64,000 nucleotides of DNA from Occultella gossypii (GTDB lineage Bacteria; Actinomycetota; Actinomycetes; Actinomycetales; Beutenbergiaceae). Below are positions 36,442-55,926 of the stretch, one piece after another (within the stretch, counting starts at the first letter, position 1; every line of letters begins with the position of its first letter). A program made the position numbers and the translations under genes. Location: positions 1 through 64,000 of the forward strand of contig NZ_JAGSHT010000029.1 in NCBI RefSeq assembly GCF_019947135.1, written 5' to 3'. A model generated the notes under the pieces. That model saw only the letters and a list, made by a program, of their open reading frames with translations. It searched no databases and had not been told where the DNA came from.

Positions 36442-38664
36442 ATGTTGTTCACCGAGACCGACCCGCCCACCACTGCCGCACCCCGGCTGATCGGTGTGGA
36501 ACGGGTCATCGGGAGCGCGCGGCACCAGGACCGGTACGGCACCCACCTCGTGCCCGGCGGGGTGGACACGGTCGTGCATGCTCCGCAGGCGACCGCCGTC
36601 GAGTTCTGCCTGCTCGACGGCGAGGGCGCGGACGCCACCGAGCGACGGTTCCGGCTGCTCGTGGGCGAGCACGGCCGCTGGCACGGACACATCCCCGAGG
36701 TCGGCCCGGGCCAGCGGTACGGACTGCGCGTGCACGGCCCGTGGGACCCGGCGCACGGCCAGTTCCACAACCCGCACAAGCTCCTCACCGACCCCTACGC
36801 CCGGGCAGTCGTCGGCTCGCTCGACCTGGTTCCGGCCGTGTACGGGCACATCGTTGACGACGACCTCCGCCCGGTCCCGGGGCAGGACGGGCGGGACGCC
36901 CGTGACAGCGCCGCGCACGTCCCGCACGGCGTGGTCGTCGACGACGCGTTCGACGACGAGCCGGTGCAGCACCCGGACACGCCCTGGGGCCGCACGGTCA
37001 TCTACGAGGCGCACGTGCGCGGCCTGACCCGCCGGCTGCCCGGGGTGCCCGAGCACCTGCGCGGCACCTACGCCGGCCTGGCGCACCCCACGACCGTGGC
37101 GCACCTGCGTGACCTGGGCATCACCGCCGTCGAACTCCTCCCGATCCACGCGAAGGTGACCGAACCGGCGCTGACCATGCGTGGCGTCGTCAACTACTGG
37201 GGCTACAACACGCTCGGCTACTTCGCACCGGAACCGTCCTACGCCACGCAGGCCGCGCAGGCAGCCGGCCCGGCCGCGGTGCTGGCCGAGGTCAAGGGCA
37301 TGGTCAAGCTCCTGCACCAGGCCGGGATCGAGGTCATCCTCGACGTCGTCTACAACCACACCTGCGAGGGCGGCACCGACGGTCCGCTGCTGTCCTGGCG
37401 CGGTCTGGACAACGCCGGGTACTACCTGCACGACGGCGCCGGGCACAGTCAGTACCTGGACGTCACCGGGTGCGGCAACTCGCTCGACTTCCGCAACCAG
37501 CACGTGGTCCGGATGACCCTCGACTCGCTGCGGTACTGGGTGACCGAGGTGGGCGTGGACGGGTTCCGGTTCGACCTCGCCACCACGATGGGCCGCAAGG
37601 GCACCACGTTCCTGGCCGACCACCCGTTCCTGGTGGCGCTGGCCTGCGACCCGGTGCTCGGCGGGCGCAAACTCATCGCCGAGCCCTGGGACCTCGGCCC
37701 CGGCGGGTGGCGCACCGGGCAGTTCGCGGCACCGATCGCGGAGTGGAACGACCGGTACCGGGACGTACTCCGGACCTTCTGGATCTCGGACGCGGCGGCC
37801 GCGGTGAACGGTGGGTACGGTCACGACCTGCGGGACCTGGCCACCCGGCTCGCCGGTTCGGCGGACATGTTCGCCCACTCCTCGGTGCCGGGCGGGCGTG
37901 GCCCGATCGCGAGCCTCAACTTCGTCACCGCCCACGACGGCTTCACGCTGCGGGACCTGGTCTCCTTCGACCACAAGCACAACGAGATCAACGGCGAGGA
38001 CAACCGGGACGGAACGGACAACAACCGGTCGTGGAACCACGGCGTCGAGGGCGAGACGGACGAGCCGGAGATCCTGGCGCACCGGCGGCGCACCATCCGC
38101 AACATCCTCGGCACCATGATGGTCTCGGCCGGCACTCCGATGATCACGGCCGGGGACGAGTTCGGGCGCACCCAGCAGGGCAACAACAACGCCTACTGCC
38201 ACGACGACGAGTCCGTGTGGGTCGACTGGGACCTGGCGCCCTGGCAGCGGGACCTGCAGGCCACCACCGAGCACCTGCTCACCCTGCGCCGGCGCAACCG
38301 CGTGCTGCGGCCGGCCCGGTTCCGGCCGTTCGACGCGCACGCGTCCCGGTCCCGACCCGCGCTGGCCTGGTTCGACGAGCACGGCGCGACCATGTCCCTG
38401 GAACGCTGGCACGACGTGAACCGCAGGGTGCTGCAGATGTTGCGCGGCGGCGAACGGGCCGACGAGCGCGACGCCCTGACCGTGATCAACGGCGCCGCGA
38501 ACCCGGTCCACGTGACCCTCTCCAGCGACGGTCCGGAGTTCTACGAACTGGTCTGGGACTCGGCCTGGGAGCACCCCGACGAGCGTCCGTCCTCGGCGAG
38601 CGTGCCCGCCGGCACCACGCTCGAGGTCCCCGAGCTGAGCATGCGGATCTACCTGCAGGCGTAG
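36442..38664 (+). CDS. glgX: Glycogen debranching enzyme GlgX
   Basis: GH13 isoamylase-type enzyme that hydrolyses alpha-1,6 branches left after phosphorylase action. 740 residues from ATG 36442. An N-terminal CBM48 domain (GGVDTVVHAPQATAVEFCLLD), then a (beta/alpha)8 barrel with DVVYNHT, nucleophile Asp in GFRFDLATT (about 377), acid Glu in LIAEPWDLGPGGW (about 413) and Asp in VTAHDGFTLRDL (about 499), and a C-terminal beta domain. GMVKLLHQAGIEVILD and DNNRSWNHGVEG are typical of GlgX. It fits with glgP and the glgE cluster a few kilobases away. Confidence 0.94.
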   Translation: MLFTETDPPTTAAPRLIGVERVIGSARHQDRYGTHLVPGGVDTVVHAPQATAVEFCLLDGEGADATERRFRLLVGEHGRWHGHIPEVGPGQRYGLRVHGPWDPAHGQFHNPHKLLTDPYARAVVGSLDLVPAVYGHIVDDDLRPVPGQDGRDARDSAAHVPHGVVVDDAFDDEPVQHPDTPWGRTVIYEAHVRGLTRRLPGVPEHLRGTYAGLAHPTTVAHLRDLGITAVELLPIHAKVTEPALTMRGVVNYWGYNTLGYFAPEPSYATQAAQAAGPAAVLAEVKGMVKLLHQAGIEVILDVVYNHTCEGGTDGPLLSWRGLDNAGYYLHDGAGHSQYLDVTGCGNSLDFRNQHVVRMTLDSLRYWVTEVGVDGFRFDLATTMGRKGTTFLADHPFLVALACDPVLGGRKLIAEPWDLGPGGWRTGQFAAPIAEWNDRYRDVLRTFWISDAAAAVNGGYGHDLRDLATRLAGSADMFAHSSVPGGRGPIASLNFVTAHDGFTLRDLVSFDHKHNEINGEDNRDGTDNNRSWNHGVEGETDEPEILAHRRRTIRNILGTMMVSAGTPMITAGDEFGRTQQGNNNAYCHDDESVWVDWDLAPWQRDLQATTEHLLTLRRRNRVLRPARFRPFDAHASRSRPALAWFDEHGATMSLERWHDVNRRVLQMLRGGERADERDALTVINGAANPVHVTLSSDGPEFYELVWDSAWEHPDERPSSASVPAGTTLEVPELSMRIYLQA

Positions 38665-38666
38665 CG

Positions 38667-38703
38667 CTGCGCCACTGACCCACGTGACGGGTCAGTGACG
38701 CAG
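38667..38703. repeat. Inverted repeat A downstream of glgX
   Basis: Fifteen-base arms (38667-38681 and 38689-38703) match at 14 of 15 positions around the loop ACGTGAC, starting two bases after the glgX stop. It would make a strong terminator hairpin. It shares a perfect 20-base segment (38683-38702) with the second repeat at 38752-38771. Confidence 0.7.
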
Positions 38704-38734
38704 GCGGTCGCACGGCACCGCCAGGTCCAGCCGC

Positions 38735-38773
38735 GTTGCGTCACTGATTCGCGTGACGGGTCAGTGACGCAAC
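38735..38773. repeat. Inverted repeat B, related copy
   Basis: GTTGCGTCACTGA (38735-38747) pairs perfectly with TCAGTGACGCAAC (38761-38773) across a 13-base loop. Its right half is the same 20-base sequence as in repeat A, 69 bases away. Two related palindromes in tandem suggest a REP-like element rather than a chance terminator. The rest of the gap to 38892 shows no gene. Confidence 0.7.
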
Positions 38774-40592: not shown

Positions 40593-41717
40593 GTGACTTC
40601 CGCCGCCCTGCCCTCCGACCCGCCCATCGACGACGCCGAGCTCAGCACCACCGAGACGCTGGACCGCTCGCTGCTGTCCGCGGTCGCCCGGAGCGGGGAG
40701 ATCGAGCAGGCCCTGGCCACGGATGCGAGCAGGTTCCGGGTGCTCACCGGGGACCGGCCGACCGGCCGCCTGCACCTGGGGCACTACCTCGGCACGCTGG
40801 CGAACCGGGTGCGTCTGCAGGACCTCGGCGTGCAGACGATGCTGCTGGTGGCCGACTACCAGGTGATCACCGACCGGGACGACGCCGGGCCGATCGCCGA
40901 GCGCACCCGTGAGCTCGTCACGGACTACCTCGCCGCCGGGATCGACCCCGCGCGGACCACCATCTTCGCGCACTCCGCGGTGCCGGCGCTGAACCAGCTG
41001 ATGCTGCCGTTCCTGTCCCTGGTCACCGATTCGGAACTGCGCCGCAACCCCACCGTGAAGGCCGAGAACGAGGCCACCGGCGGCCGGCCGATGAGCGGCC
41101 TGCTGCTCACCTACCCGGTGCACCAGGCCGCGGACATCCTGTTCTGCAAGGCGAACCTGGTACCGGTCGGAAAGGACCAGCTCCCGCACCTGGAGCTGAC
41201 CCGGGTGATCGCCCGGCGGTTCAACGAGCGCTACGCGGGCGGCCGAACCGTGTTCCCGTCCCCGGACGCCCTGCTCAGCGACGCCGTGAACGTGCTCGGC
41301 GTGGATGGGCAGAAGATGTCCAAGTCCCGCAGGAACACCATCGATCTGGCGATGACCGAGGACGAGACCACCAAGCAGCTCAAGCGGGCCGTCACGGACT
41401 CCGACCGGAACATCACCTATGACCCGGTCGGGCGGCCCGAGGTCGCGAACCTGCTCTCGATCGCGGCCCAGCTCGGCGCCGGCACCCCGGAGGAGCTCGC
41501 CGCGCAGATCGGCGACGGCGGTGGTGGCGGCCTGAAGAAGCTCGTCACCGAGGCCGTCAACGAGCACCTGCGCCCGATCCGGGCCCGCCGCCGCGAGCTC
41601 GAGGCCGACCCCGGCTACCTCGCCTCCGTACTCGCCGAGGGCAATGCCCGCGCCAACGAGATCGCCGACGCCACGCTCGCCGAGGTCCGCGAGGCGATGG
41701 GCATGACGTACGTCTGA
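40593..41717 (+). CDS. trpS: Tryptophan--tRNA ligase
   Basis: Class I synthetase charging tRNA-Trp. 374 residues with a roughly 45-residue N-terminal extension, the HIGH-like motif TGRLHLGHYLG (about 57-67), DYQVITDRD, YPVHQAADILF, VGKDQLPHLELTR and the KMSKS motif GQKMSKSRRN (about 243-252). An ATG two codons earlier is possible, but the GTG lies six bases behind a TAGGGT box and may be the leaderless start. An essential single-copy role is expected. Repeat-rich sequence begins 44 bases downstream. Confidence 0.95.
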   Translation: MTSAALPSDPPIDDAELSTTETLDRSLLSAVARSGEIEQALATDASRFRVLTGDRPTGRLHLGHYLGTLANRVRLQDLGVQTMLLVADYQVITDRDDAGPIAERTRELVTDYLAAGIDPARTTIFAHSAVPALNQLMLPFLSLVTDSELRRNPTVKAENEATGGRPMSGLLLTYPVHQAADILFCKANLVPVGKDQLPHLELTRVIARRFNERYAGGRTVFPSPDALLSDAVNVLGVDGQKMSKSRRNTIDLAMTEDETTKQLKRAVTDSDRNITYDPVGRPEVANLLSIAAQLGAGTPEELAAQIGDGGGGGLKKLVTEAVNEHLRPIRARRRELEADPGYLASVLAEGNARANEIADATLAEVREAMGMTYV

Positions 41718-41760
41718 GCAGCCCCCGGACCCCTCGTCCTGCCGCGCGAGCGTGCGATCG

Positions 41761-41871
41761 TCCGGCCCATCAGGGTGTTCCGCCGCATTACCGAACGTTC
41801 GCGCCCGGCACCGCCCACAGGGGAACCCGCCGACCGTGCGGTTCTGCGGCCCATCCGGGGTATCCGCCGCA
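41761..41871. repeat. Two copies of the CGGCCCATC repeat upstream of the first DUF559 gene
   Basis: Twenty-seven-base units at 41761-41787 and 41845-41871 match at 22 of 27 positions, and each can pair its ends (TGCGGC with GCCGCA in the second). They share the GCGGCCCATC core with the palindromes after the gene (43007-43051). Besides these and the small hairpin at 41889-41907, the gap 41718-41995 contains nothing recognisable. Confidence 0.55.
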
Positions 41872-41888
41872 CAACAACTCCCGGTCTG

Positions 41889-41907
41889 ACTCGCCCATCC
41901 GGCGAGT
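41889..41907. repeat. Small stem-loop ahead of the first DUF559 gene
   Basis: ACTCGCC (41889-41895) pairs with GGCGAGT (41901-41907) across CATCC. The GCCCATCCGG core relates it to the neighbouring repeat units. Confidence 0.4.
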
Positions 41908-41995
41908 GGGACGCACAACCGCACCCTCGACGCGGCTCGGGCGGGCTGTCCACAGGCCTGGGACGGCGTCTGGGTAGTTCTGGTGACCTTGCGGG

Positions 41996-42973
41996 ATGCG
42001 GAAAGTCAGCCATCCGGACCAGGCCACCGCCCTCGCCCGGAGTCAGGGCGGCCTGATCAGCGCCCGCCAGTGCGACGAACTGGGTATCAGCGGCGACCGC
42101 CGCACGGCCCTGGTCCGTCACGGCCTGTGGTACCGAGTGGTGCGCTCGGTCTACGACTGCCAACTTCCCACCGACGACGGCAATGCCTTCGATCGTCGCC
42201 GGCGGCGGTCGGCGTGGATCGCGCTCCTCGCGGCGGGACCGGACGCGGTCGCGACCGGAATGTGTGCCCTCGTGCTCCACGGTGTCTGGGGACTTCCCCA
42301 GGTGATCGCTCCGGAGGCGATGCTTCCCGGCGTGCGCGCCAACCGGGGGCCGGTCGGAGTCCGGATCCGTCGAGGTCCACGGACCGGGCGTATCGTGCGC
42401 GTCGGCAGCGCCCGCGCGGTCGACGTGCGCACCGCCCTCATCCAGGCGCTGCCGGAGTTGGATCGCAACACCGCGGTCGCCGTCATGGACTCTGCTCTCA
42501 ATCGAGAACTCATCGACACCGAGGGACTCGCGTGGGTCCGCCGGCACCTGCGCGCACGCCGGGGGGCACGCAGGCTCGAGGCCTGGTGGCCGCTGGTCGA
42601 CGGACGTGCCGAGTCGCCCCTCGAGACGCACGCCCGCCTGGACTGCCTCGACCATGGGCTGCCGCCGGAGGAGCTCCAGCTCAAGGTTCGGGACGGGCAT
42701 GGCCGCCTGCTCGGCCGGGGTGACCTGGCCTGGCGACGAGAGGACGGAACATGGGTGGTCGCCGAGGTCGACGGCGAGGACATCCACTCCGCGACACCGG
42801 CGTTGTACCGCGACCGGAACCGTCAGAACGATTTCGCGATCGACTCGGACGTGACGCAGCTCCGCTTCGCTGCCCCGGACGTCTACCGACCGGGTGCGAT
42901 CGCGGCCAAGGTCCGTGCCGCGCTGGCGTCGAACGTGCGATCCCGCGGCAGAACAGGCCGATCCGCCGCCTGA
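41996..42973 (+). CDS. AbiEi-HTH / DUF559 (Vsr-like) endonuclease-family protein
   Basis: 325 residues. The N-terminal third resembles the AbiEi antitoxin winged-helix domain (ALARSQGGLISARQCDELGI through GLWYRVVRSVYD). The middle has the usual linker (ALVLHGVWGLP). The C-terminal DUF559 domain has PD-(D/E)XK-like elements (GRAESPLETHARL about 203-215, LGRGDLAW about 239-246, VVAEVDGEDIHS about 254-265) and RDRNRQNDF. Nuclease activity is predicted from fold, not known. No AbiEii-type toxin is next to it. It stands alone between trpS and glgP, bracketed on both sides by related palindromic repeats. A homologue, frameshifted, is at 53872-54836. Confidence 0.8.
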   Translation: MRKVSHPDQATALARSQGGLISARQCDELGISGDRRTALVRHGLWYRVVRSVYDCQLPTDDGNAFDRRRRRSAWIALLAAGPDAVATGMCALVLHGVWGLPQVIAPEAMLPGVRANRGPVGVRIRRGPRTGRIVRVGSARAVDVRTALIQALPELDRNTAVAVMDSALNRELIDTEGLAWVRRHLRARRGARRLEAWWPLVDGRAESPLETHARLDCLDHGLPPEELQLKVRDGHGRLLGRGDLAWRREDGTWVVAEVDGEDIHSATPALYRDRNRQNDFAIDSDVTQLRFAAPDVYRPGAIAAKVRAALASNVRSRGRTGRSAA

Positions 42974-43006
42974 TCGCACCGTCGGTTCGAACCCGCTCGG
43001 TCGAGA

Positions 43007-43051
43007 GTGTCCTTGTGCGGCCCATCAGGGCGATGGGCCGCACGATGACAC
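43007..43051. repeat. Palindrome 1 downstream of the first DUF559 gene
   Basis: Perfect 12-base arms GTGCGGCCCATC (43015-43026) and GATGGGCCGCAC (43032-43043) surround a five-base loop, with partly matched outer GTGTC/GACAC ends. An 18-base segment (43007-43024) recurs exactly at 43079-43096. Confidence 0.75.
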
Positions 43052-43073
43052 CCCCGACGAAACTGCCCCGAGA

Positions 43074-43127
43074 CGAACGTGTCCTTGTGCGGCCCAACGG
43101 AGCTGTGGCCGCACAAGGACACATTCG
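43074..43127. repeat. Palindrome 2, 21-base arms, between the first DUF559 gene and glgP
   Basis: Arms 43074-43094 and 43107-43127 match at 20 of 21 positions around a 12-base loop; the left arm begins CGAACGTGTCC. It may act as a bidirectional terminator for the convergent DUF559 and glgP genes. Its CGAACGTG ends are also found on the otherwise different palindrome at 53810-53865. Confidence 0.8.
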
Positions 43128-43158
43128 GTGTGATGCCGGTCGCGGCGGGGAACCGAAC

Positions 43159-45750
43159 TCAGGCCGTGGCGACCAACGCCAGCTCGGTCGGACCCGCCAG
43201 GTCGCGGTGCTTGGGCACGATCCGGACGTTGTAGCCGAACGGACCGGACTGGGCGAGGGTGAACGCGCGGCTGAAGTGGTAGCGCCCGCCCTCGTAGGTG
43301 TCGGTCAGCTCCAGCTTGGACGTCCCGAACTCGTCGATCTCGTCGTTGTCGGAGACCCGGCCGTAGTTCATCTGGACCTCGACATCGTCCGGGCTGAGCT
43401 GGCCGAGCGAGACGAACGCCTTGATGGTGACGTGGTCGCCCACCTTGACCGCCTCGTGCAGCCCCTCGGACTCGACGTGGTCGACCCGCACACTCGGCCA
43501 GGCGGCGCGCACCGTGGCCTTCCAGTCCGCGAGCTCGATCGCTCCGGTGTACCCGGGGCCGTCGAGGTTCCGGTAGGACTGCGCCGTCGGGGTGTACAGC
43601 TCGGTGATGTAGTCGCGCACCATCCGGGTGGCCTGGACCTTCGGCCCGAGGGTGGCCAGCGTGTGCCGGATGTTCTCCAGCCAGTGCACGGGCAGCCCGT
43701 CGGTGCGGTCGTAGAACCGCGGCGCGACGGTGTTCTCGAGCAGGTCGTACAGCGCGGAGGCCTCGAGGTCGTCCCGACGCTCCGGGTCGTCGACGCCGTC
43801 GGCGGTGGGGATCGCCCAACCGTTCTGGCCGTCGTACATCTCGTCCCACCAGCCGTCGAGCACGGACAGGTTGAGCGCGCCGTTCAGGGCCGCCTTCATG
43901 CCGGACGTCCCACACGCCTCGAGCGGGCGCAACGGGTTGTTCAGCCACACGTCGCAACCCGGGTAGAGGGTCTGCGCCATCTCGATGTCGTAGTTCGGCA
44001 GGAACACGATCCGGTGCCGCACGTCCTCGGAGTCGGCGAACTGCACCAGCTTCTGGATCAGTCGCACGCCCTGCTCGTCGGCGGGGTGGGACTTGCCGGC
44101 GACCAGGATCTGCACCGGCCGGTCCGGGTCGGTGAGCAGCGCCCGCAGCCGATCCTCGTCGCGCAGCATCAGCGTGAGCCGCTTGTACGTGGGCACCCGG
44201 CGGGCGAACCCGATGGTCAGCACGTCGGGGTCGAGCACACCGTCAACCCAGCCGAGCTCGGCAGCCGAGGCGCCGCGCTGGGTCCAGGACTTGCGCACCC
44301 GGCCGCGGGCGTTGTGGACCAGCCGCTCGCGCAGCTGTCGGCGCAGCTCCCACAGGGTCGCGTTGTCGATGCCGCCGTCCTGCTTGTACCAGCCGCTCCC
44401 GGATTCGATCTCGTCGGCGGTGAAGTACTCGGCCTGGGCCCCGGCGAACAGCGGGTCGATCCAGGTCGGGCTGTGCACGCCGTTCGTCACGGACGTGATC
44501 GGCACCTCGCCGACGTCGAAGCCCGGCCACAACTGGTGGAACATCGACCGCGACACCTGGCCGTGCAGCTTGGCCACGCCGTTGGCACGCTTGGCCAGCC
44601 GCAGGCCCATCACGGCCATGTTGAACACGGTCGGGTCGCCGCCGTCGTAGTCCTCGCGACCGAGCGCGAGGACGTCGCCGACCTCGATCCCGGGGATCGA
44701 GTTGCCGCCACCGAAGTACTCGGCGATCAGGTCGGCACCGAAACGGTCGATGCCGGCGGGCACCGGGGTGTGGGTGGTGAACACCGTGCCGGCCCGCACC
44801 GCCTCGAGCGCGGCCGGGAACGCGAGCCCTTCCGACTCGATCAGCTCGTGGATGCGCTCGATGCCGAGGAAGCCGGCGTGGCCCTCGTTGCAGTGGTACA
44901 CCTCGGGCGTCGGCGCGCCGGACAGCCGCGAGTGCAGTCGCAGGGCCTTGACCCCGCCCATGCCGAGCAGCAGCTCCTGCTGCAGCCGGTGCTCGCTGGT
45001 GCCGCCGTACAGGCGGTCGGTGACCTTGCGGGCCGCGTCGTCGTTGTCGGGCACGTTCGAGTCGAGCAGGAGCAGCGGGACCCGGCCGACGTCGGCGCGC
45101 CACACCTGGGCGTGCAGGGTGCGCCCGCCGGGCAGCGGCAGGCTGATCCGCGACGGCGTCCCGTCGGCTTCGCGCAGCAGCGTCAGCGGGAGGTTGTCCG
45201 GGTCGAGCACGGGGTAGGTCTCGTGCTGCCAGCCGTCCCGGGTCAGGGACTGGCGGAAGTAGCCGGCGCCGTAGAGCAGGCCGACGCCGACGATCGGCGC
45301 GGCGAGGTCGGAGGCGCTCTTGAGGTGGTCGCCGGCCAGGATGCCGAGGCCGCCGGAGTACTGCGGCAGTGCGGCGGCGATCCCGAACTCGGCGGAGAAG
45401 TACGCGACGGCGGCGGGCAGGGCCGGCTCGCCGGCCTGCTCCCGACGGCGTCCCTCGGCCTGGTACCAGCGGTCCTCGCTCCGGTAGGTGTCGAGGTCCG
45501 CGGCGAGCGCGCGCACGCGCTCGACGAAGCCGGCGTCCGCGGCGAGCTCGGCCAGCCGCTCCGGCGACAGCGACCCGAGGAGCCGGATCGGGTCGCCGTG
45601 GAAGGCCTCCCACCGCTCGGGGTCGATCGAGGAGAATAGGTCGCGGGTAGGTGCGTGCCAGGCCCAGCGCAGGTTCAGGGCGAGGTCGTCGAGTGCGCCG
45701 AGGTCCTCGGGCAGGACGGTGCGAACGGTGAATCGTCGAATGGCTCTCAC
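43159..45750 (-). CDS. glgP: Alpha-glucan phosphorylase GlgP
   Basis: PLP-dependent phosphorylase releasing glucose-1-phosphate from alpha-1,4-glucan ends. 863 residues from GTG 45750, with the DUF3417-type N terminus of actinobacterial/archaeal phosphorylases (LPEDLGALDDLALNLRWAWHAP). It also has the active-site region YFSAEFGIAAALPQYSGGLG, GNEGH-like YHCNEGHAGFLGIERI and the PLP lysine in EACGTSGMKAALNGALN (about residue 619). Upstream open frame beyond 45750 is antisense to glgE. TATGCT six bases before the GTG suggests a leaderless mRNA. It shares a control region with glgE. Confidence 0.95.
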   Translation of the reverse strand: MRAIRRFTVRTVLPEDLGALDDLALNLRWAWHAPTRDLFSSIDPERWEAFHGDPIRLLGSLSPERLAELAADAGFVERVRALAADLDTYRSEDRWYQAEGRRREQAGEPALPAAVAYFSAEFGIAAALPQYSGGLGILAGDHLKSASDLAAPIVGVGLLYGAGYFRQSLTRDGWQHETYPVLDPDNLPLTLLREADGTPSRISLPLPGGRTLHAQVWRADVGRVPLLLLDSNVPDNDDAARKVTDRLYGGTSEHRLQQELLLGMGGVKALRLHSRLSGAPTPEVYHCNEGHAGFLGIERIHELIESEGLAFPAALEAVRAGTVFTTHTPVPAGIDRFGADLIAEYFGGGNSIPGIEVGDVLALGREDYDGGDPTVFNMAVMGLRLAKRANGVAKLHGQVSRSMFHQLWPGFDVGEVPITSVTNGVHSPTWIDPLFAGAQAEYFTADEIESGSGWYKQDGGIDNATLWELRRQLRERLVHNARGRVRKSWTQRGASAAELGWVDGVLDPDVLTIGFARRVPTYKRLTLMLRDEDRLRALLTDPDRPVQILVAGKSHPADEQGVRLIQKLVQFADSEDVRHRIVFLPNYDIEMAQTLYPGCDVWLNNPLRPLEACGTSGMKAALNGALNLSVLDGWWDEMYDGQNGWAIPTADGVDDPERRDDLEASALYDLLENTVAPRFYDRTDGLPVHWLENIRHTLATLGPKVQATRMVRDYITELYTPTAQSYRNLDGPGYTGAIELADWKATVRAAWPSVRVDHVESEGLHEAVKVGDHVTIKAFVSLGQLSPDDVEVQMNYGRVSDNDEIDEFGTSKLELTDTYEGGRYHFSRAFTLAQSGPFGYNVRIVPKHRDLAGPTELALVATA

Positions 45751-45756
45751 ACCGCG

Positions 45757-45762
45757 AGCATA
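45757..45762 (-). promoter_or_regulatory. Possible -10 element of a leaderless glgP mRNA
   Basis: On the minus strand TATGCT ends six bases before GTG 45750 and no SD is present. TTCGCA 17 bases further up could be the -35, and it overlaps the first TTGCGA-type operator. Confidence 0.5.
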
Positions 45763-45768
45763 GGGGAC

Positions 45769-45806
45769 TCGCAACGGATTGCGAACCTTGCAACGTTCTT
45801 GCAAGG
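45769..45806. promoter_or_regulatory. Two TTGCAA-type palindromic operators in the glgP-glgE control region
   Basis: TCGCAA (45769-45774) pairs with TTGCGA (45779-45784) around CGGA. Directly after it, CCTTGCAA (45786-45793) pairs perfectly with TTGCAAGG (45799-45806) around CGTTC. The form resembles operators of LacI-family maltose/alpha-glucan regulators such as MalR. No such regulator gene is in the window, so the binding protein is inferred. Confidence 0.65.
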
Positions 45807-45856
45807 CCGCCTCGCCCGACTGACCGACTCCACGTGTGGAGGAGCGCCGCTCTGGG

Positions 45857-45862
45857 TAGGTT
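45857..45862 (+). promoter_or_regulatory. Possible -10 element of a leaderless glgE mRNA
   Basis: TAGGTT ends six bases before GTG 45869, with no SD directly before the start. Together with the glgP box it gives a symmetric, divergent, probably leaderless promoter pair around the operators. Confidence 0.5.
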
Positions 45863-45868
45863 CGACCC

Positions 45869-47880
45869 GTGAGCACTCCACTACCCGCGCCCACCGCACC
45901 CATCGGCCGAATCCCCGTCATCGAGGTCGGCCCCATCGTCGAAGGTGGTCGCTGGCCCACCAAGGCGGTGGCCGGCGAGGTGATCCCGGTCCGCGCCACC
46001 GTCTTCCGCGAGGGGCACGATGCCGTCGCCGCGACGGCGGTCCTGGTCGGACCGGACGGCACCGACCACAGCCACGTGCGGATGGTGGACGTCTCCCCCG
46101 GCAACGACCGGTACGAGGCCTGGGTCCAGCCGGACGCCGTCGGGAACTGGTCGTTCCGGGTGGAGGGCTGGTCCGATCCGTACGGCACCTGGTCCCACGA
46201 CGCCGTGCTGAAGGTGCACGCCGACGTCGACACCGAGCTGATGCTGGACGAGGGCGCCCTCGTCCTCGAGCGCGCCGCTGCCGCCCCGGCGATGACGGCG
46301 GCGCACCGGCAGGTCCTCGGCGACGCCGTGCTGGGTCTGCGGGACGTCGCCCGTCCGCCCGTGGCCCGGCTCGCCGCGGGCATCTCGCCCGAGGTCCGCG
46401 CTGTGCTCGCCGAGGTGCCACTGCGGGACGCGGTCTCCCCGAGCGCCGCCTATCCCCTCACCGTGCACCGCCCGCGAGCGCTGTACGGCTCCTGGTACGA
46501 GTTCTTCCCCCGTTCCGAGGGCGCCCACCAGGACCCGAACACGGGCGAGTGGATCTCCGGCACGCTGCGCACGGCGGCCGAGCGACTGCCTGGCATCGCC
46601 GAGATGGGCTTCGACGTCGTCTACCTGACCCCGATCCACCCGATCGGCACCACGAACCGCAAGGGCCGCAACAACACCCTGGGCACCGAGCCCGGCGACC
46701 CCGGCTCCCCGTACGGCATCGGCGCGGCCGACGGCGGCCATGACGCGATCCACGCCGACCTCGGCACCTTCGACGACTTCGACGCGTTCGTGGCCCGCGC
46801 CCGCGCGCTGGGCCTCGAGGTGGCCCTGGACCTGGCGCTGCAGGCGTCCCCGGACCACCCGTGGGTCACCGAGCACCCGGAGTGGTTCACCACCCGTGCG
46901 GACGGCACGATCGCCTATGCCGAGAACCCGCCGAAGAAGTACCAGGACATCTACCCGCTGAACTTCGACAACGACCCCGCCGGCATCTACACCGCCATCC
47001 GGGACGTGCTCGGCGTCTGGATCGACCACGGCGTCACCCTGTTCCGGGTGGATAACCCGCACACGAAGCCGCTGCCGTTCTGGGAACGCATCCTGGCCGA
47101 CGTCGCGGCCGACCACCCGGACGTGATCTTCCTGTCCGAGGCGTTCACCCGCCCGGCCATGATGCGCACGCTGGCCACCGTCGGGTTCCACCAGTCCTAC
47201 ACGTACTTCACCTGGCGCCATACGAAGGACGAGCTCGCCGAGTACTTCACCGAGGTGGCCGGAGACTCCGCCGCCGTGATGCGGCCCAGCTTCTGGCCGA
47301 CCACCCACGACATCCTCACCCCGTACATGCAGCAGGGCGGCGCCGCCGCGTTCGCCATCCGCGCCGTGCTCGCCGCCACCGGCTCACCGACGTGGGGCAT
47401 CTACTCCGGCTACGAGCTCGCCGAGCACGTCGCCCGGCCCGGCGCCGAGGAGCAGATCGACAACGAGAAGTACGAGTACAAACCACGGGACTGGGAGCGT
47501 GCCCGCGAGCAGTACGGGCTCACCGCGCTGCTGACCGCTCTGAACCGGATCCGCCGCGACCACCCGGCGCTGCAGCAGCTGCGCAACATTCGTATCCACC
47601 CGACCTCCGACGACGCGACCCTCTGCTACTCCAAGCGGGTCCGCGCCGAGCATTCCCCCACCGGCCGCGAGGACGTCGTCATCGTCGTGGTGAACCTCGA
47701 CCCGTTCACCACCCGGGACTCACTGCTGCACCTGGACCTGGCCGCGCTCGGGCTCGACGGCCAGGACGCGTTCGCCGCGCATGACGAGCTCTCCGGCGAG
47801 ACCTACTCCTGGGGCGCGAACCCGTTCGTGCGCCTGGACCCGTGGGGGCGCCCGGCGCACATCATCCACGTGAGGCCGGC

Positions 47881-47884
<4 letters not shown>
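45869..47884 (+). CDS. glgE: Alpha-1,4-glucan:maltose-1-phosphate maltosyltransferase GlgE
   Basis: Transfers maltose from maltose-1-phosphate to alpha-1,4-glucan. 671 residues: an N-terminal Ig-like domain (about 1-110), a helical insert (about 110-190) and the GH13_3 barrel. Characteristic motifs are [29 protein letters not shown], nucleophile Asp in [16 protein letters not shown] (about 394), Glu in [12 protein letters not shown] (about 423) and [16 protein letters not shown] 45869 is preceded by TAGGTT and no SD. It is the first gene of the glgE-treS-mak/glgB operon and overlaps treS as ATGA. Confidence 0.96.
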
Positions 47885-49934
<2,050 letters not shown>

Positions 49935-49938
<4 letters not shown>

Positions 49939-52900
49939 GCGAGGTGCCGTCGCTGCTGATCGAACTGCTGGAGCCATGGATCCGCGCGCAGCGCTGGTTC
50001 CCGGCCAAGGACGAACCGGGCGCCGCGATCCGTGTGCTCAGTTCCACGGACCTGCCCGATCCCGCCGGGCAGGCCTCCTGCACGGTGCTGATCCTCGCCG
50101 TCGACCGCAGCGCCGGCACCACGCTCGTGCAGGTGCCGGTGGTGACCACCCCGCGGCCCGGAGCGGACCCGGGGCCGGCACCGACCGGACTGATCGCGAC
50201 CCTGGCCGGTGACCGAGCACTCATCGACGGTCCCCACCACCCGGCGTTCGTACGCGCATGGCTGGCGGCCGCCGAGACCGGCCTCGCCGAGAGTGCGTCG
50301 GCGAGTGGCGGCCCGGTAACCGACGCACCGGATCCGGTGGCGCCGGCCGTCGTCGCCGATGTCTCCGCCGCCGCCACGGGCGCCCGGGTCCTCACCGGCG
50401 AGCAGTCGAACACCTCGGTGCTCCTGCCCGCCGCAGGAGCGATCCTCAAGGTGTTCCGGGTGCTTGCCGCCGGCCCGAACCCGGACATCGACGTGACCCG
50501 CGCCCTGCACCGGTCCGGCTGGTCGCAGGTGCCGGCGCCGCTGGGCTGGTCGGCGGGTCGCTGGCCGGACCCGGCCGGGTCCGGCGCGCCGCAGCAGGGC
50601 TACCTGGGCGTGCTCACCGCATTCGTCCCGGACGCCCGCGACGGTTTCGCCCTGCTCTGCGAGCGCGCCGCCACGGGCGCGGACGTCACGGACCTGGTCC
50701 ACGACCTTGGCGTGACGGTCGCGGACATGCATGAGCACCTGCGCACCGCCCTGCCGATCCACGATCCGCGCAGCCCCGCTGCGCGGGCCGGCGACCTGGC
50801 CGCGGCGATGCGCCAGCGCGCCACCTGGGCGCTGGACACGGTGCCCGACCTGGCCCCGTTCGCGGAGGCGATCGACGAACTGATCAGGGGCGTCGCCGCG
50901 ATGGAGACGGTGCCGAGCGTCCAACGGATCCATGGCGACCTGCACCTGGGCCAGACGCTGCGTTCCGGCGGAGGCGACGCGGCGACCGGCGGTGCCGCGG
51001 TCGACGCGATGCCCGACCGCGCCCACGGGCCCGGATGCAGCACGCCGGCCTGGTACGTGATCGACTTCGAGGGCGAACCATTGCGGCCGTTGGCGCAGCG
51101 GACCCGGCCGGACCAGCCGCTGCGGGATCTGGCCGGCATGCTCCGGTCGCTCGACTACGCGGCCGCCGTCGGCGGGGCACCCAGCGAGGACTGGACGAGC
51201 GCTGCCCGCGCCGCCCTCCTCGCCGGCTACATCGAGGGTGGCAACAACTCCGCCGCCCAGCACGAGGCCGTCGACGACGAGCGCGACCTCCGCACCGGGG
51301 GCACCCTGGTTCGTGCCCTCGAACTGGACAAGGCCCTGTACGAGGCCGTCTACGAGTACCAGAACCGCCCGGACTGGCTGTCGATCCCGCTCCGCGGAAT
51401 CCGACGGATCACAGAGGAGCACGCCATGACCTTCCCACCTGAGGACGACGCCGTCGGGGCACCACTGAGCATCCCGGTCGAGGCAGCGCTCGACGCACCG
51501 CCGGCCGCGGTACCGGGCACGGCCGCAGGAGAGCCGGCCGACGGCGACGCCGACGACAACGGCGAGCCCACGCCGTCGACCACCACCCCCGGCGACGCCG
51601 ACGACGACGGCGAGCCCACGCCGTCGACCATCGACCGCGACCTGCTCGGAATCGTCGCCCACGGTCAACACTTCGCCCCACACGACGTCCTCGGTCCGCA
51701 CCTGGACGCCGAGCGCGGCGTCGTCACGATCCGGACGGTGCGCCACCTGGCCACGGCCGTCACGATCGTCACGCCCGACGGTCGGCACGGGGCCCGGCAC
51801 GAGGACTTCGGCGTCTGGGTGCTCGCCCTGCGCGCCGACGAGGTGCCGGACTACCGCGTCGAGGTCACGTACGAGGCCGGCCCGGTCCTGGCCGACGACC
51901 CGTACCGGTTCCTGCCCACCCTCGGCGAGGTCGACCAGCACCTCATCCGGGAGGGCCGCCACGAGAGGCTCTGGGAAGTGCTCGGGGCGCACGTGCGGAC
52001 GTTCGGGTCCGTGCTGGGCGAGGTCCGTGGGGTGTCGTTCTCGGTGTGGGCACCGAATGCGCGGGCGGTGCGGGTCGTGGGCGACTTCAACGGCTGGGAC
52101 GGCCGGTCGTCGTCGATGCGGTCACTCGGCTCGAGCGGGGTGTGGGAGCTCTTCCTGCCCGACGTCGACGATGGCGCGAGGTACAAGTTCGAGCTCTGTT
52201 ACGCCGACGGTTCCTGGCACACGAAGGCCGACCCGATGGCCCGGGCCGCCGAGGTGCCGCCGGCGACCGCCTCGGTGGTGACCACCTCCGAGTACAGGTG
52301 GGCGGACGAGGACTGGATGGCGGCCCGGGCGGCGCAGGATCCGCACAGCGGCCCGATGAGCGTGTACGAGGTGCACCTCGGCTCCTGGCGGCCCGGCCTC
52401 ACTTACGTCGAGCTCGCCGATCAGCTGGTGGGGTACGTGACCTGGATGGGCTTCACGCACGTCGAACTGATGCCGGTGGCCGAGCACCCGTTCGGCGGGT
52501 CCTGGGGCTACCAGGTCACGTCCTACTACGCCCCGACGTCGCGGTTCGGCAGTCCGGACGAGTTCCGGCATCTGGTCGATGCACTGCACCGGGCCGGCAT
52601 CGGGGTGATCCTGGACTGGGTCCCGGCGCACTTCCCGAAGGACGAGTGGGCCCTGGCCGCCTTCGACGGGACCGCCCTGTACGAGCACCCGGACCCGATG
52701 CGCGGCGAGCAGAAGGACTGGGGCACCCTGGTCTTCAACTTCGGGCGCAACGAGGTCCGCAACTTCCTGGTCGCGAACGCCCTGTACTGGCTCACCGAGT
52801 TCCACATCGACGGCCTCCGGGTGGACGCGGTGGCGTCGATGCTCTACCTCGACTACTCGCGCGAGCCCGGCCAGTGGCGACCGAACGAGCGCGGCGGCCG

Positions 52901-53789
52901 GGAGAACCTGGAGGCCATCCAGTTCCTTCAGGAGACGAACGCGACGGCCTACCGGCTCGCCCCCGGGATCGTCATGATCGCCGAGGAGTCCACCGCGTGG
53001 CCGGGGGTGACGGCGTCCACCGATCACGGTGGCCTGGGCTTCGGCCTGAAGTGGAACATGGGCTGGATGAACGACACGTTGCGGTACCTGGCGGAGGAGC
53101 CGATCAACCGCCGCTACCACCACGGCGAGCTGACCTTCTCGCTCGTGTACGCGTTCTCCGAGCGGTTCGTACTGCCGATCAGTCACGACGAGGTGGTCCA
53201 CGGCAAGGGCTCGCTCTGGCAGAAGATGCCCGGCGACCTGTGGCAGAAACTGGCCGGCGTCCGAGCGCTGTTCGCCTACCAGTGGTCCCACCCAGGCAAG
53301 AACCTGATGTTCATGGGCGGGGAGTTCGCGCAGAACCGGGAGTGGAACGAGGGCGCCGGCCTCGAGTGGGGGCTGGGCGACACCCCTGCCCACGCCGGGG
53401 TCCGGCTCGCGCTGCGGGCGCTGAACCAGGTCTACCGGGACAACCCGGCCCTGTGGCGCGCGGACCACACGTACCACGGGTTCGAGTGGCTGGAGGCGAA
53501 CGACGGCGACCACAACGTGCTGGCCTACCTGCGCAAGGACGGCGAGGACCACATCGCGGTGCTGGTGAACTTCGCCGGCACCGGGCACCAGTCCTACCGG
53601 CTCGGCCTCCCGCACGGCGGCGACTGGACGGAGATCCTCAACACCGACGACCCGTCGTTCGGCGGCTCCGGGGTCCTCAATCCCGGCACCCTGACCGCCG
53701 AGGACATGCCCTGGCACGGCCGGAGCCACTCGGTGCTCATCGAGGTACCGCCGCTGGGTGCCATCTTCCTCAAGCCCGTCACCGCCTGA
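49935..53789 (+). CDS. Maltokinase - glycogen branching enzyme (Mak/Pep2-GlgB) fusion
   Basis: One uninterrupted ORF of 1284 residues. Residues 1 to about 495 are maltokinase ([15 protein letters not shown]; Brenner motif [14 protein letters not shown] near 335; YVIDFEGEP near 375; end [15 protein letters not shown]), which makes maltose-1-phosphate. After a repetitive acidic linker (about 498-570) comes the 1,4-alpha-glucan branching enzyme: GlgB N1/CBM48 domains, then the barrel with [15 protein letters not shown] (nucleophile Asp about 962), [12 protein letters not shown] (Glu about 1015) and [11 protein letters not shown]. It starts in an ATGA overlap with treS. An internal ATG at 51426 has its own SD, so free GlgB may also be made. 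Confidence 0.93.
51412..51429 (+). promoter_or_regulatory. Internal ribosome-binding site and start codon of the GlgB part
   Basis: GAGGAG (51414-51419) stands six bases before an in-frame ATG at 51426, and that ATG is part of an ATGA like those joining the other genes of this operon. It could start free GlgB, or be a relic of an ancestral mak-glgB overlap. Confidence 0.5.
51543..51638 (+). repeat. Two 48-base repeats encoding the Mak-GlgB linker
   Basis: Units beginning at 51543 and 51591 encode [16 protein letters not shown] and [16 protein letters not shown]. The acidic, Pro/Thr-rich, probably flexible linker separates maltokinase from the branching enzyme. The near-identical DNA indicates recent duplication. 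Confidence 0.7.
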
Positions 53790-53809
53790 CCCGGGCGTCG
53801 GACCGACGT

Positions 53810-53865
53810 CGAACGTGAGGTTGTTGGCGCCTCCGGCGTCGGTGGAGCCAACAACCTCGCGTTCG
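53810..53865. repeat. Palindrome bracketing the second DUF559 gene (glgB side)
   Basis: Nineteen-base arms (53810-53828, CGAACGTGAGGTTGTTGGC; 53847-53865) match at 18 of 19 positions around an 18-base centre. It lies between convergent glgB and the DUF559 pseudogene, where it can also terminate both. A 45-base segment (53817-53861) recurs at 54898-54942 with four mismatches. Confidence 0.8.
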
Positions 53866-53871
53866 AGCTGA

Positions 53872-54836
53872 TCAGGCCGCGAGGGCCCGGCGGACCTGGT
53901 TGGGGATGATCCCTCCCCGCAGGACGTCTCGGCCGGCGAACCGCAGCAGCAGGGCATCGGATCGGGTGGCGATCGCGTTCTGCCGCTCGCGGTCGGCGAA
54001 CAGCGCGGCCGGGTTCGAGTGGACGTCGCGACCGTCCACCTCGACCAGCACCCAGCGCCCGTCCTTCCGGCGCCAGCCCAGGTCGGCCCGAGCCACGAAC
54101 AGCCCACGCGCGTCCCGGACCTCCACCTGCAGATCGTCCGGAGGCAGTCCGTGATCGACGCAGTCGAGTCGCGCGAACGACTCCATCGGCGACTCGGCCC
54201 GCCCGTCCACGAGTTCGAGCCATCCGTGGACGCCCGTCGACCACGCAGCAGTTGGGCGATCCACTCCAGGTCCTCCGCGCGGAGCAGTCCCAGATGCAGA
54301 CCCGAGTCGAGCATCGCCACGGCCGTGTCCCGCGGCAGTTCCGGCAGCGCCTGCACGAGCGCACACCGTACGGACGCGACCCGCGGCTTCCTCGCCTCCG
54401 GCCCTTCGCGGCCCACGGCGATCCTTGGCCCCATCCGCACGACCTCCAGTGGGAGTTCGTAGCGGCGGACCGTCACTCCGCTGGCACCCGGGGCTCCCCG
54501 GCCGCCGGGGAGCGTCACCTCCGGCGGGATCTGGCGTGGCAGCCCGTGGATGCCGTGGAGCGCGAGGGCGCTCAGCCCGACCACAACCGCGTCGGAGGGA
54601 GCAGCCAGGCAGGCGAGCCAGCCGGACCTCATTCTGGCGAGATCGAGAGGGTGGACGGTCGGGTCCGCCTGGCCGGTGTCGTAGACGCCGCGCGTGGCCC
54701 GGGTCCAGTGACCGGCCCGGACCAGGCTCGCGAGCCGATGGTCACAGATGCCGAGTTCACGGCACTGGTGCCGACTGACCAGCCCGGCCTGCGCGCGGGC
54801 GAGCCAGCGGACCCGCGGCTCCGGTCGAACGGTCAT
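53872..54836 (-). pseudogene. AbiEi-HTH / DUF559 endonuclease-family gene broken by a single-base frameshift
   Basis: Homologue of the protein at 41996-42973. The first part (about 199 codons from ATG 54836: RWLARAQAGLVSRHQCRELG through LEWIAQLLRGRR) is in one frame. The DUF559 part (GVHGWLELVDGRAESPMES, VARADLGWRRKDGRW, VLVEVDGRDVHSN, DRERQNAIA) is in another and runs to the stop at 53872. Comparison with the intact paralogue puts the loss of one base near 54233-54239, inside a CCCGTCG stretch. Catalytic-looking residues remain, so the lesion may be recent or an error. Flanked on both sides by near-identical 45-base palindromes. Confidence 0.78.
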
Positions 54837-54894
54837 CCCCTATGGGACTTCGTTCTGCCGAGACCTCACCGAAGCCCTGTGGACGGCGGCCGAG

Positions 54895-54942
54895 CGCGAG
54901 GTTGTTGGCTCCTCCGGCGTCGACGGAGCCAACAACGTCGCG
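54895..54942. repeat. Palindrome bracketing the second DUF559 gene (thioredoxin-like side)
   Basis: Eighteen-base arms (54895-54912, CGCGAGGTTGTTGGCTCC; 54925-54942) match at 17 of 18 positions around TCCGGCGTCGAC. It is in the same orientation as, and 41 of 45 identical over the core to, the copy at 53817-53861. It lies downstream of the thioredoxin-like gene, where it can act as its terminator. Confidence 0.8.
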
Positions 54943-54972
54943 GTCACCGGCCACGACCCCGGCCGGCAGCGG

Positions 54973-55926
54973 CTAGAAGAGCGCGACGGCGAGGTCGCGG
55001 CGCGCCTTGATGAGTTCCTGGGAGTCCTCGGGAGCGAGCAGGAACAGGTCGAGCAGCCGCAGCCGCGCCTCTTCCCGCTCCGGGCCGGCGGTCACCCGGA
55101 TCACGCCGATGACCCGCGCGTACCCGGCGGCGAGCTGGCCGGCGCCGATCTCGACGTCGGCGGCCACCAGCTGCACCGGCAGGTCGCCGGGGGCGGCGTC
55201 CCGCGCCGCGGTGAGCGCGCTGATCGCGTCAACGCCGTTCAGGCGGCGCAGCAGGTTCACCTGGGCGAGCCCGGCCTTCGCCTCGTTGTCCGCCGGGTTC
55301 TCCTTGAGCGCCTGCTCGAAGGCTGCCGCGGCGCCGTCGAGGTCGTCCGCCTCGATGGCGTCGTAGGCGGCCTGGATCAGCGGCGGCAGCTCCGGCTCCG
55401 GGGCCTCCTCCGGCTCCTCACTGGAGACGTCGAGCTGACCGGAGACGCCGTTCTCGGCGGCAACCCGGAGCAGTTCGTCGAGGACCTGGCGGATCTGCTC
55501 GGCGGGGTAGGCCCCCTGGAACAGCGGGAGCGGCTGGCCCTTCATCACGGCCAGCACGGACGGCACCGCCTGCACCTGAAACGCCTGGGCGATCCGTGGG
55601 CTGGTGGTCACGTCCACGCGGGCGAGCAGGAACCGGCCGGCGTAGGAACCGGCGAGTTCGGTCAGCACCGGCATCAGTTCGTCGCTGTTGGCCTCGGCGG
55701 GCTGGTACAGCGCCACCACGACGGGCACCTGGGCGGACTGCTGGACCACGTCGTTGAACGTGGCCTCGGTGACGTCCACCACGGCCCCGCCCCCGGCATC
55801 CCCGGCCGGGCCAACGCCCCCGGCCGGGCCGGTGCCACCGGCGGGCCGCTGCCCGGGCGGAGGCCCGGACAGTGCCGAGAGGTCGACGGCGCCGCGCAGA
55901 TTCAACGAGGGGGGAGGCTGGCTCAT
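54973..55926 (-). CDS. Thioredoxin-like/TPR protein (CnoX/YbbN-like)
   Basis: 317 residues. After a Pro/Gly-rich N terminus comes a thioredoxin fold (about 48-165: VVVALYQPAEANSDELMPVL, FQVQAVPSVLAVMKGQPL) in which the CXXC active site is absent. An acidic linker (SSEEPEEAPEPELPP) leads to helical TPR-type repeats (about 190-317: AAAAFEQALKENPADNEAKAG). This matches the CnoX/YbbN co-chaperone-like family, where the thioredoxin part has no disulfide activity. ATG at 55926; no clear neighbour function. Confidence 0.85.
   Translation of the reverse strand: MSQPPPSLNLRGAVDLSALSGPPPGQRPAGGTGPAGGVGPAGDAGGGAVVDVTEATFNDVVQQSAQVPVVVALYQPAEANSDELMPVLTELAGSYAGRFLLARVDVTTSPRIAQAFQVQAVPSVLAVMKGQPLPLFQGAYPAEQIRQVLDELLRVAAENGVSGQLDVSSEEPEEAPEPELPPLIQAAYDAIEADDLDGAAAAFEQALKENPADNEAKAGLAQVNLLRRLNGVDAISALTAARDAAPGDLPVQLVAADVEIGAGQLAAGYARVIGVIRVTAGPEREEARLRLLDLFLLAPEDSQELIKARRDLAVALF

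What the first reader, a model, noticed from the sequence alone, without database searches (positions are those of the whole stretch)
41761..54942. AbiEi/DUF559 endonuclease-like genes bracketed by cognate, gene-specific palindromes: a possible REP-like nuclease element
Seen: both DUF559 genes in the window (41996-42973 and 53872-54836) have palindromic repeats on both sides. The repeats around each gene belong to one family and differ between genes (GCGGCCCATC-type versus GAGGTTGTTGGC-type, 41 of 45 identical across the second gene). Two of the palindromes share CGAACGTG ends. Known: REP sequences and RAYT transposases show this cognate layout; DUF559 is a Vsr-like PD-(D/E)XK nuclease fold. 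Inference: the nuclease may recognise and spread or protect its own palindrome. Alternative: the repeats are ordinary terminators kept by position.
Basis: partly seen in the sequence, partly recalled or inferred. Interest (0 to 1): 0.72.

Follow-up and report, generated by a model that had tools for sequence, protein, structure and literature searches.

The report
Nuclease genes bracketed by cognate hairpins
In this actinobacterium and many relatives, genes for a family of predicted DNA-cutting proteins often sit between matching DNA hairpins that differ from gene to gene, an arrangement that resembles known transposase-and-repeat partnerships but involves an unrelated kind of enzyme.

Summary
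The layout is real and reaches far beyond this window (genus Occultella). The genes are AbiEi_4 winged-helix proteins with a Vsr-like REase C-terminus; Pfam's DUF559 model does not match gene A. In 40 homologue loci chosen by protein score, flanks unseen, 18 carry matching palindromes on both sides of the gene, against 3 of 1749 control windows. The palindrome type differs between loci and between paralogues of one genome. The top outlier of an ORF-level control proved to be a distant homologue. Both window families are dispersed, often at ordinary gene ends. Stems covary across lineages. At one slot the protein diverges faster than its neighbours; two slots are empty in one relative. 23 of 24 family genomes lack a Y1 (RAYT) transposase. 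Best reading: a REP/RAYT-like partnership built on a different nuclease; recognition, cutting and spreading are inferred, not shown. Against active spread: 5 of 5 testable solo sites (4 loci) are shared within the genus; gene B is broken in 3 of 4 species; 22 of 40 loci fail the bracket test. Nine literature searches listed no paper that, by title and abstract start, joins these genes to palindromes.

The parts
41747..41801 (.). family-A repeat, left copy 1 (degenerate palindrome)
   Evidence: repeat family D1; aligned in G001 and G003, region absent in G002
41831..41885 (.). family-A repeat, left copy 2 (degenerate palindrome)
   Evidence: repeat family D1; unit absent from G003 and G002
41996..42973 (+). 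gene A: AbiEi_4 winged helix plus Vsr-like REase (325 aa)
   Evidence: orthologues in the 4 Occultella genomes, in two pieces in G002
42928..42988 (.). family-A repeat overlapping the 3' end of gene A
   Evidence: R2 model hit 31 bits
43000..43060 (.). family-A palindrome, right copy; 72-bp period with its neighbours
   Evidence: R2 model 77.6 bits (it is one of the model's own rows); 72-bp unit absent in G002 and G003
43072..43131 (.). family-A palindrome, right copy, best preserved
   Evidence: R2 75 bits (one of the model's own rows); ssDNA fold z -7.6; present in all 4 species
53809..53866 (.). family-B palindrome at the 3' side of gene B
   Evidence: R1 79 bits (one of the model's own rows); z -9.2; present in G002 and G003, lost in G001
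53872..54836 (-). gene B: same protein family, reading frame broken near 54236
   Evidence: also broken in G001 and G002, no break in G003
54890..54947 (.). family-B palindrome at the 5' side of gene B
   Evidence: R1 72 bits (one of the model's own rows); z -7.5; present in all 4 species

Best explanation
Each gene and its hairpins form a cassette that works like a REP/RAYT pair, but with a different enzyme. Shown: matching hairpins on both sides of many of these genes, a hairpin type specific to the gene, dispersed solo copies of the resident type, a stem kept by compensating changes between lineages, and turnover of the cassette at fixed slots. Inferred: the protein binds its own hairpin (as ssDNA or an extruded cruciform) through its AbiEi_4 winged helix. 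It would read the variable middle of the stem, between the conserved CGA base and CGGC tip. It then nicks or cuts there with its Vsr-like domain, and repair or re-insertion copies the hairpin to other gene ends and keeps the two flanking copies alike.
For: Bracketing (matching palindromes on both sides, score >=18) in 18 of 40 loci chosen without sight of their flanks, against 3 of 1749 control windows; 16 of 40 against 0 of 1904 with 250-bp flanks. Permutation of left and right flanks over 23 loci (these include window A, B and locus C): 0 of 10000. Strong palindrome on at least one side: 27 of 40 homologues against 75 of 381 other ORFs. Among 451 other ORFs, 3 were bracketed: the top one is a distant AbiEi_4 homologue with its own hairpin type, one adjoins a cassette, one lies between two solos of the resident type. 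Solos resemble own-genome cassettes: mean similarity p 2e-4; 7 of 37 at score >=18 against 1.2 expected. An exact two-arm hairpin of the G014 slot-I type occurs 3 times in G014, once in G018 and 0 times in the six other genomes of that genus. Covariation over 15 hand-picked hairpins: 15 of 23 pairs changed on both sides, 61 cells against 22.9+-3.8 shuffled, 0 of 500. Slot I, three species compared: cassette protein 56-65% identical, neighbours 81-89%. Slots I and II empty in G020. Slot II proteins are not one clade (AU p 2e-5). Of 15 R1 sites in G000, 6 lie between convergent, 7 between co-directional, 1 between divergent genes, 1 unclear (read).
Against: No binding, cleavage, insertion or target duplication was seen. 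22 of 40 loci fail the bracket cut-off, 9 of 20 family and 13 of 20 class loci. Locus C (C35) has no matching pair. Gene A's left copies are decayed. Solos number tens, not hundreds (counts are lower bounds). 5 of 5 solo sites of other Occultella, at 4 loci, are present in G000 (R1 sites only, drawn from the best-scoring). Gene B is broken in 3 of 4 species although its hairpins persist. The palindrome-protein correlation is weak (rho 0.17, p 0.018; 0.15 and 0.034 without L179). Covariation within family R1 does not exceed shuffles. Of the 7 solos that match, one in G018 matches G014's cassette better than its own. The related hairpins of slot II in G015 and G016/G019 go with proteins from different branches. 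Flanking copies are direct in 13 and inverted in 8 of 21 loci, unlike RAYT.
Confidence: 0.52

Rival explanations
1. The hairpins are operators. The AbiEi-like winged helix binds inverted repeats to regulate its own gene, and solo copies are a regulon.
For: AbiEi_4 is annotated as a transcriptional regulator. R1 hairpins mix two half-site types, and the mix is kept between species at two loci, as a dimer site could be.
Against: Matched copies also lie downstream of the gene. Only 1 of 15 R1 sites lies between divergent genes. Stem covariation across lineages and tandem 72-bp arrays are not expected of operators.
Confidence: 0.17
2. The whole cassette is an insertion-sequence-like element with the hairpins as its ends; solos are its internally deleted remnants.
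For: Slots empty in G020; slot II occupied by different protein branches; up to 7 matches per genome in the class survey, where 7 is also the number scored per genome.
Against: In the 12 within-genome pairs compared the hairpins are unlike and the proteins at most 65% identical, so no fresh copies were seen. Junctions are not base-precise and no target duplication was seen. The boundaries coincide with gene ends. No match to gene A's protein in the plasmid or phage collections.
Confidence: 0.17
3. Ordinary transcription terminators kept by position, made alike by gene conversion.
For: Most of the 15 R1 sites lie at a gene 3' end. CGAA..TTCG ends recur in unrelated strong hairpins of this genome.
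Against: Does not explain matching pairs concentrated on this protein family or solos matching resident cassettes. The scan found no U-tract terminator in 41600-55200, although that scan covers only the canonical type.
Confidence: 0.08
4. Self-marking defence: the nuclease cuts foreign DNA and its own hairpins act as decoy, protective or addictive sites.
For: The MTES_1575 Vsr-like REase was described in fusions proposed to act in defence (PMC3710099, passages read); that AbiEi is a type IV antitoxin is recalled. Fast evolution of the slot-I protein.
Against: No positive sign of a defence partner; the four direct neighbours of A and B are metabolic or thioredoxin-like genes, and no wider search for a methylase or toxin was made. 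Hairpins persist beside broken gene B.
Confidence: 0.06

Closest known systems
REP / RAYT (REPtron, REPIN-RAYT)
   Same: Gene flanked by two cognate palindromes, gene-specific repeat types, dispersed solos at convergent or co-directional gene ends, clusters, repeat and gene changing together, gene evolving faster than its neighbours (abstract and passages of PMC2817692, PMC3116915, PMC3733652).
   Different: The enzyme is an AbiEi_4 plus Vsr-like REase, not a Y1/HUH transposase, which the 4 Occultella genomes lack. The hairpins are long (about 45-75 nt) with near-perfect arms and no GTAG head. Flanking copies are direct or inverted. Copy numbers are in the tens.
CGTC-tagged REPs
   Same: Dispersed palindromes at gene ends; described as apparently lacking a dedicated transposase (PMC3733652, abstract and passages).
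   Different: CGTC occurs near the stem in 14 of 37 sites, not at a fixed place; here a candidate partner gene exists.
Vsr-like REase MTES_1575 family (PF18741)
   Same: 10 of 25 aligned homologues match.
   Different: The founding protein is a giant fusion with HEPN, helicase and wHTH domains (PMC3710099, passages). Here it is a protein of about 320 residues with AbiEi_4 and hairpins beside the gene.
AbiEi antitoxins (type IV TA; the pairing with AbiEii is recalled)
   Same: N-terminal AbiEi_4 domain in 23 of 25.
   Different: C-terminal nuclease-like domain; the gene downstream of A is a convergent phosphorylase.

Membership tests
REP/RAYT | Y1 (HUH) tyrosine transposase encoded between the repeats | tested here: not met
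   PF01797 has no match at E <= 0.001 in 23 of 24 family genomes, including all 4 Occultella; 2 matches in draft G006. The bracketed gene is AbiEi_4 / REase_MTES_1575.
REP/RAYT | gene flanked on both sides by copies of one palindrome type | tested here: met
   18 of 40 unseen loci against 3 of 1749 controls; not universal, whereas RAYT genes are said to be always flanked (abstract of PMC2817692)
REP/RAYT | flanking copies inverted | tested here: not met
   13 direct, 8 inverted of 21 loci scored; several near ties
REP/RAYT | GTAG (or CGTC) tag beside the palindrome | tested here: not met
   37 G000 sites: GTAG 0, CGTC 14 and at no fixed place
REP/RAYT | solo copies abundant where the cognate gene is present | tested here: inconclusive
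   specificity seen; abundance low; hairpins persist beside broken gene B
Vsr-like REase (MTES_1575) | profile match and conserved acidic residues and His | tested here: inconclusive
   10 of 25 match PF18741; P0001 itself does not. E210, D243, E257 and H264 are invariant in 25. Structure prediction failed, pLDDT 39.
DUF559 (PF04480) | profile match over curated cut-off | tested here: not met
   no match in G000; 1 of 25 members of A3 at E 0.0098
AbiEi antitoxin | AbiEi_4 N-terminal domain | tested here: met
   23 of 25 at E <= 0.01; gene A 21 bits, under its cut-off of 25
AbiEi antitoxin | partner AbiEii nucleotidyltransferase toxin in an operon (recalled) | tested here: not met
   direct neighbours of A: tRNA synthetase and phosphorylase; of B: glycogen-branching type and thioredoxin/TPR; only these four were checked
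intrinsic terminators | GC stem followed by a U tract | tested here: not met
   0 found in 41600-55200

The most novel reading that the evidence does not exclude
A separate class of nuclease-hairpin symbiosis, arisen independently of RAYT/REP: wHTH-plus-Vsr-like nucleases of actinobacteria each maintain and disperse their own hairpin, using a PD-(D/E)XK-type cut and host repair instead of a transposase. Specificity lies in the variable middle of the stem and changes together on both sides of the gene.
Probability: 0.35. Interest if true: 0.92.

Novelty: new variant of a known kind. Interest (0 to 1): 0.8.

Why it matters
If true, REP-like repeat families can be run by more than one enzyme class, which would offer an answer for palindromic repeats that lack a RAYT. 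It also gives a widespread actinobacterial protein family (matches in 125 of 295 sampled genomes of the class) a testable substrate: the hairpin written beside its own gene.

Tried and rejected
PF04480 as a handle for the genes: no match in G000; protein and alignment queries used instead. Genome-contig scan with P0001: one locus, which named the genus (O. aeris). Viral contigs with A3: no relative. Plasmid and phage collections with P0001: no match. Structure of P0001 from a two-row alignment: pLDDT 39, not used; no fold search made. PDB sequence search: nothing under E 0.7. NCBIfam: no family for the 25 members. Covariation inside family R1: no excess over shuffles; R2 a modest excess. Simple terminators and operators were ranked low for the reasons given among the rivals. 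Recent movement of solos in Occultella: not supported, 5 of 5 testable sites shared. The loss of the downstream gene-B hairpin in G001 looks like a deletion between short GCGAG repeats, not an excision (my reading). Papers: nine searches with DUF559+palindrom, DUF559+inverted repeats, AbiEi+DUF559, MTES_1575+endonuclease, REPIN+RAYT+nuclease, REP+RAYT+endonuclease+actinobacteria, AbiEi family antitoxin or type IV toxin-antitoxin+actinobacteria, and two broader sets listed none that, by title and start of abstract, joins these genes to palindromes. Three of the lists were cut (one search showed 15 of 24, 12 of 20, 10 of 58). Only four papers were opened, for passages.

Rows dropped and choices made: the tree has 31 rows; L161 (same locus as L193), L163, L165, L166 and L167 (poor or doubtful ORFs) were left out. 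The 20 family loci are the best scores outside the genus, skipping G006 and G017 (short contigs). The 20 class loci are the best locus of the 18 top genomes plus two lower ones (G107, G177). Two solo palindromes of 39 (from G012, no cassette hairpin) fell out of the test. One search used 19 loci: L178, L180 and L188 had no palindrome over its threshold, and gene B was represented by the G003 protein. One search's slot-I comparison left out G015, whose left neighbour differs. The g8-only clade test was named after seeing the tree. The 15 hairpins were picked by hand and their stem drawn by me after seeing the alignment; several are related, so the shuffle control overstates independence. The score cut-off of 18 was chosen after seeing the first loci; other cut-offs and flank sizes are. 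Rows of both strands of one site stand in the alignments, so the counts are not of independent rows.
Full report
What is in the window. The window lies on contig C12 of a 5.84-Mb draft actinobacterial genome, G000. A 96% identical gene-A protein sits in Occultella aeris, whose contig is that of the G001 genome, which the tool places in the same genus. Gene A (41996-42973, +) lies between a tRNA-synthetase gene (PF00579) and a convergent carbohydrate-phosphorylase gene; gene B (53872-54836, -) lies between a glycogen-branching-type gene and a thioredoxin/TPR gene. Both proteins carry an N-terminal AbiEi_4 match (A 21 bits, B 27 bits, cut-off 25). Over 25 homologues, 23 match AbiEi_4, 10 match the Vsr-like REase_MTES_1575 model and 1 weakly matches DUF559. 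E210, D243, E257, H264, D273, R276, Q277 and N278 of gene A are invariant in all 25. That these form a nuclease site is inference from the family; a structure prediction failed.

The palindromes. Gene A has two copies to the right, one overlapping its own 3' end and two decayed copies to the left. Strong palindromes are rare: 4 in the window, against 0, 0 and 1 in three shuffles, and 51 in 1.08 Mb of this genome, window included. Both families are dispersed. Model R1 (gene-B type) gives 36, 22, 11 and 23 matches and model R2 (gene-A type) 52, 65, 35 and 24 in G000-G003 at E <= 0.1, most sites being counted on both strands; the tool scored 150 candidates a genome, so these are lower bounds. Several R2 sites form arrays with a period near 72 bp, as at 42928/43000/43072 and in G001 contigs C6 and C58. 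Of 15 R1 sites in G000, 6 lie between convergent genes, 7 between co-directional, 1 between divergent and 1 is unclear (my reading, which used a crude ORF caller).

The test across relatives. I took 20 kb around 20 homologues from other genera of the family and 20 from other families of the class, chosen by protein score. 18 of 40 have matching palindromes on both sides (11 of 20 family, 7 of 20 class). Control windows of gene size in the same regions give 3 of 1749; with 250-bp flanks the numbers are 16 of 40 against 0 of 1904; leaving out L179, a near copy of L176, gives 17 of 39. Shuffling which left flank goes with which right flank over 23 loci never reached the observed mean in 10000 trials. 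In L175 both 55-nt hairpins are identical. As a second control I scored 451 other ORFs. Three pass. One is L177:17195-18322, a DAHP synthase between two solo copies of that genome's own type. One is an ACPS gene next to a cassette. The third, L174:13271-14236, had the highest score, and on inspection encodes a distant homologue (AbiEi_4 21.6 bits; tblastn to members of the set at E 1e-9 to 1e-5) with a hairpin type of its own. This was a blind re-discovery.

Specificity. Paralogues in one genome have unlike hairpins (scores 5-16 in 12 pairs), below the matched-pair cut-off of 18. Of 37 solo palindromes in the family regions, 7 match a cassette of their own genome at score 18 or more, against 1.2 expected when genomes are relabelled; the mean similarity has p 2e-4. 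One of the 7, in G018, matches G014's cassette better still. In the G000 sample, 4 of 48 strong palindromes away from A and B match their families at 18 or more; of 27 foreign cassettes, 24 match none, two match 1 and one (L193, whose right hairpin is of a common GAACGGCCCGG type) matches 3. An exact two-arm hairpin of the G014 slot-I type occurs 3 times in G014, once in G018, whose slot-I hairpin is the nearest in this genus, and never in the six other genomes. Over 15 hand-picked hairpins of slot I and of the gene-A type, 15 of 23 stem pairs show changes on both sides and 61 cells changed on both sides, against 22.9+-3.8 in shuffles. The base (CGA) and tip (CGGC) are largely kept while the middle varies. 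Inside family R1 there is no such excess, inside R2 a modest one.

Evolution of the cassette. In the four Occultella genomes A and B are syntenic. Repeat units come and go: a 72-bp unit right of A is missing in G002 and G003, and the unit right of B is lost in G001, probably by deletion. The gene-A position (slot II) is the same, by both neighbours (75-85% protein identity), in nine loci of two other genera. Six of these hold a homologue, in G016/G019, G018, G015 and G012/G013, with hairpins of several types or, in G012, none over the threshold. It is empty in G020, where the neighbours nearly touch; G014 holds 448 bp of filler and G021 two other ORFs, neither with the nuclease gene. Proteins from slot II are not one clade (AU p 2e-5; within one genus p 0.002), so the slot has been refilled or converted. 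The four slot-I proteins do form one clade; their hairpins have diverged, and in three of the four are matched left and right (L174, L175, L177; L184 has a strong hairpin on one side only). There the protein is 56-65% identical between three species whose neighbours are 81-89% identical. Against a simple story, the slot-II hairpins of G015 and G016/G019 are related although their proteins sit on different branches.

Comparison with known systems. The layout, the gene-specific repeats, the solos at gene ends and the fast gene evolution repeat what was reported for RAYT and REP (PMC2817692, PMC3116915 and PMC3733652, abstract and passages seen). The enzyme does not: Y1_Tnp is absent from 23 of 24 family genomes and from the 4 Occultella. 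The GTAG head is absent and orientation is mixed. So this works like REP/RAYT but is not a member. Nine paper searches listed no report of it in the held library, which lacks most subscription journals.

Mechanism and limits. I judge a functional protein-hairpin partnership likely; spreading by nuclease action is the best guess and is unproven. The solo sites that could be checked are old: 5 of 5 sites of other Occultella genomes, at 4 loci, are present in the G000 sample. Gene B is broken in G000, G001 and G002 while hairpins of its type stay. Less than half of the homologues pass the bracket test, and gene C of this genome does not. An operator role or an IS-like whole-cassette element remains possible.

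Noticed in passing
window 38660-38773; L016 8453-8491; L039 8098-8146: A third dispersed palindrome family (GCGTCACTGA...TCAGTGACGC), with two copies close together in the window; its cognate gene, if any, was not looked for.
   Followed up: no
window 54207-54240: Gene B's reading frame breaks here; the homologue is also broken in G001 and G002 and shows no break in G003.
   Followed up: partly
L174 5220-14236: Three AbiEi/Vsr-like genes of two subfamilies within 10 kb in G015; two have matching hairpins on both sides, of different types, and one has a palindrome on one side.
   Followed up: partly
L267 1584-2230; L175 beside the cassette: A FitA-like antitoxin and PIN-domain pair (Pfam) occupies slot I in G016; in G019 an ORF with the same 3' end sequence lies beside the nuclease cassette.
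   Followed up: partly
R1 sites L142, L145, L146 and L044 17917: Many R1 hairpins join two different half-sites (GAGGTTGTTGGC and GACATCGTTGGC), and the mixed state is kept between species at L142/L083/L094 and at L044/L093.
   Followed up: partly
L264, slot II of G014: 448 bp of filler (G+C 0.62 against 0.70 around it) without the nuclease gene where relatives hold a cassette.
   Followed up: no
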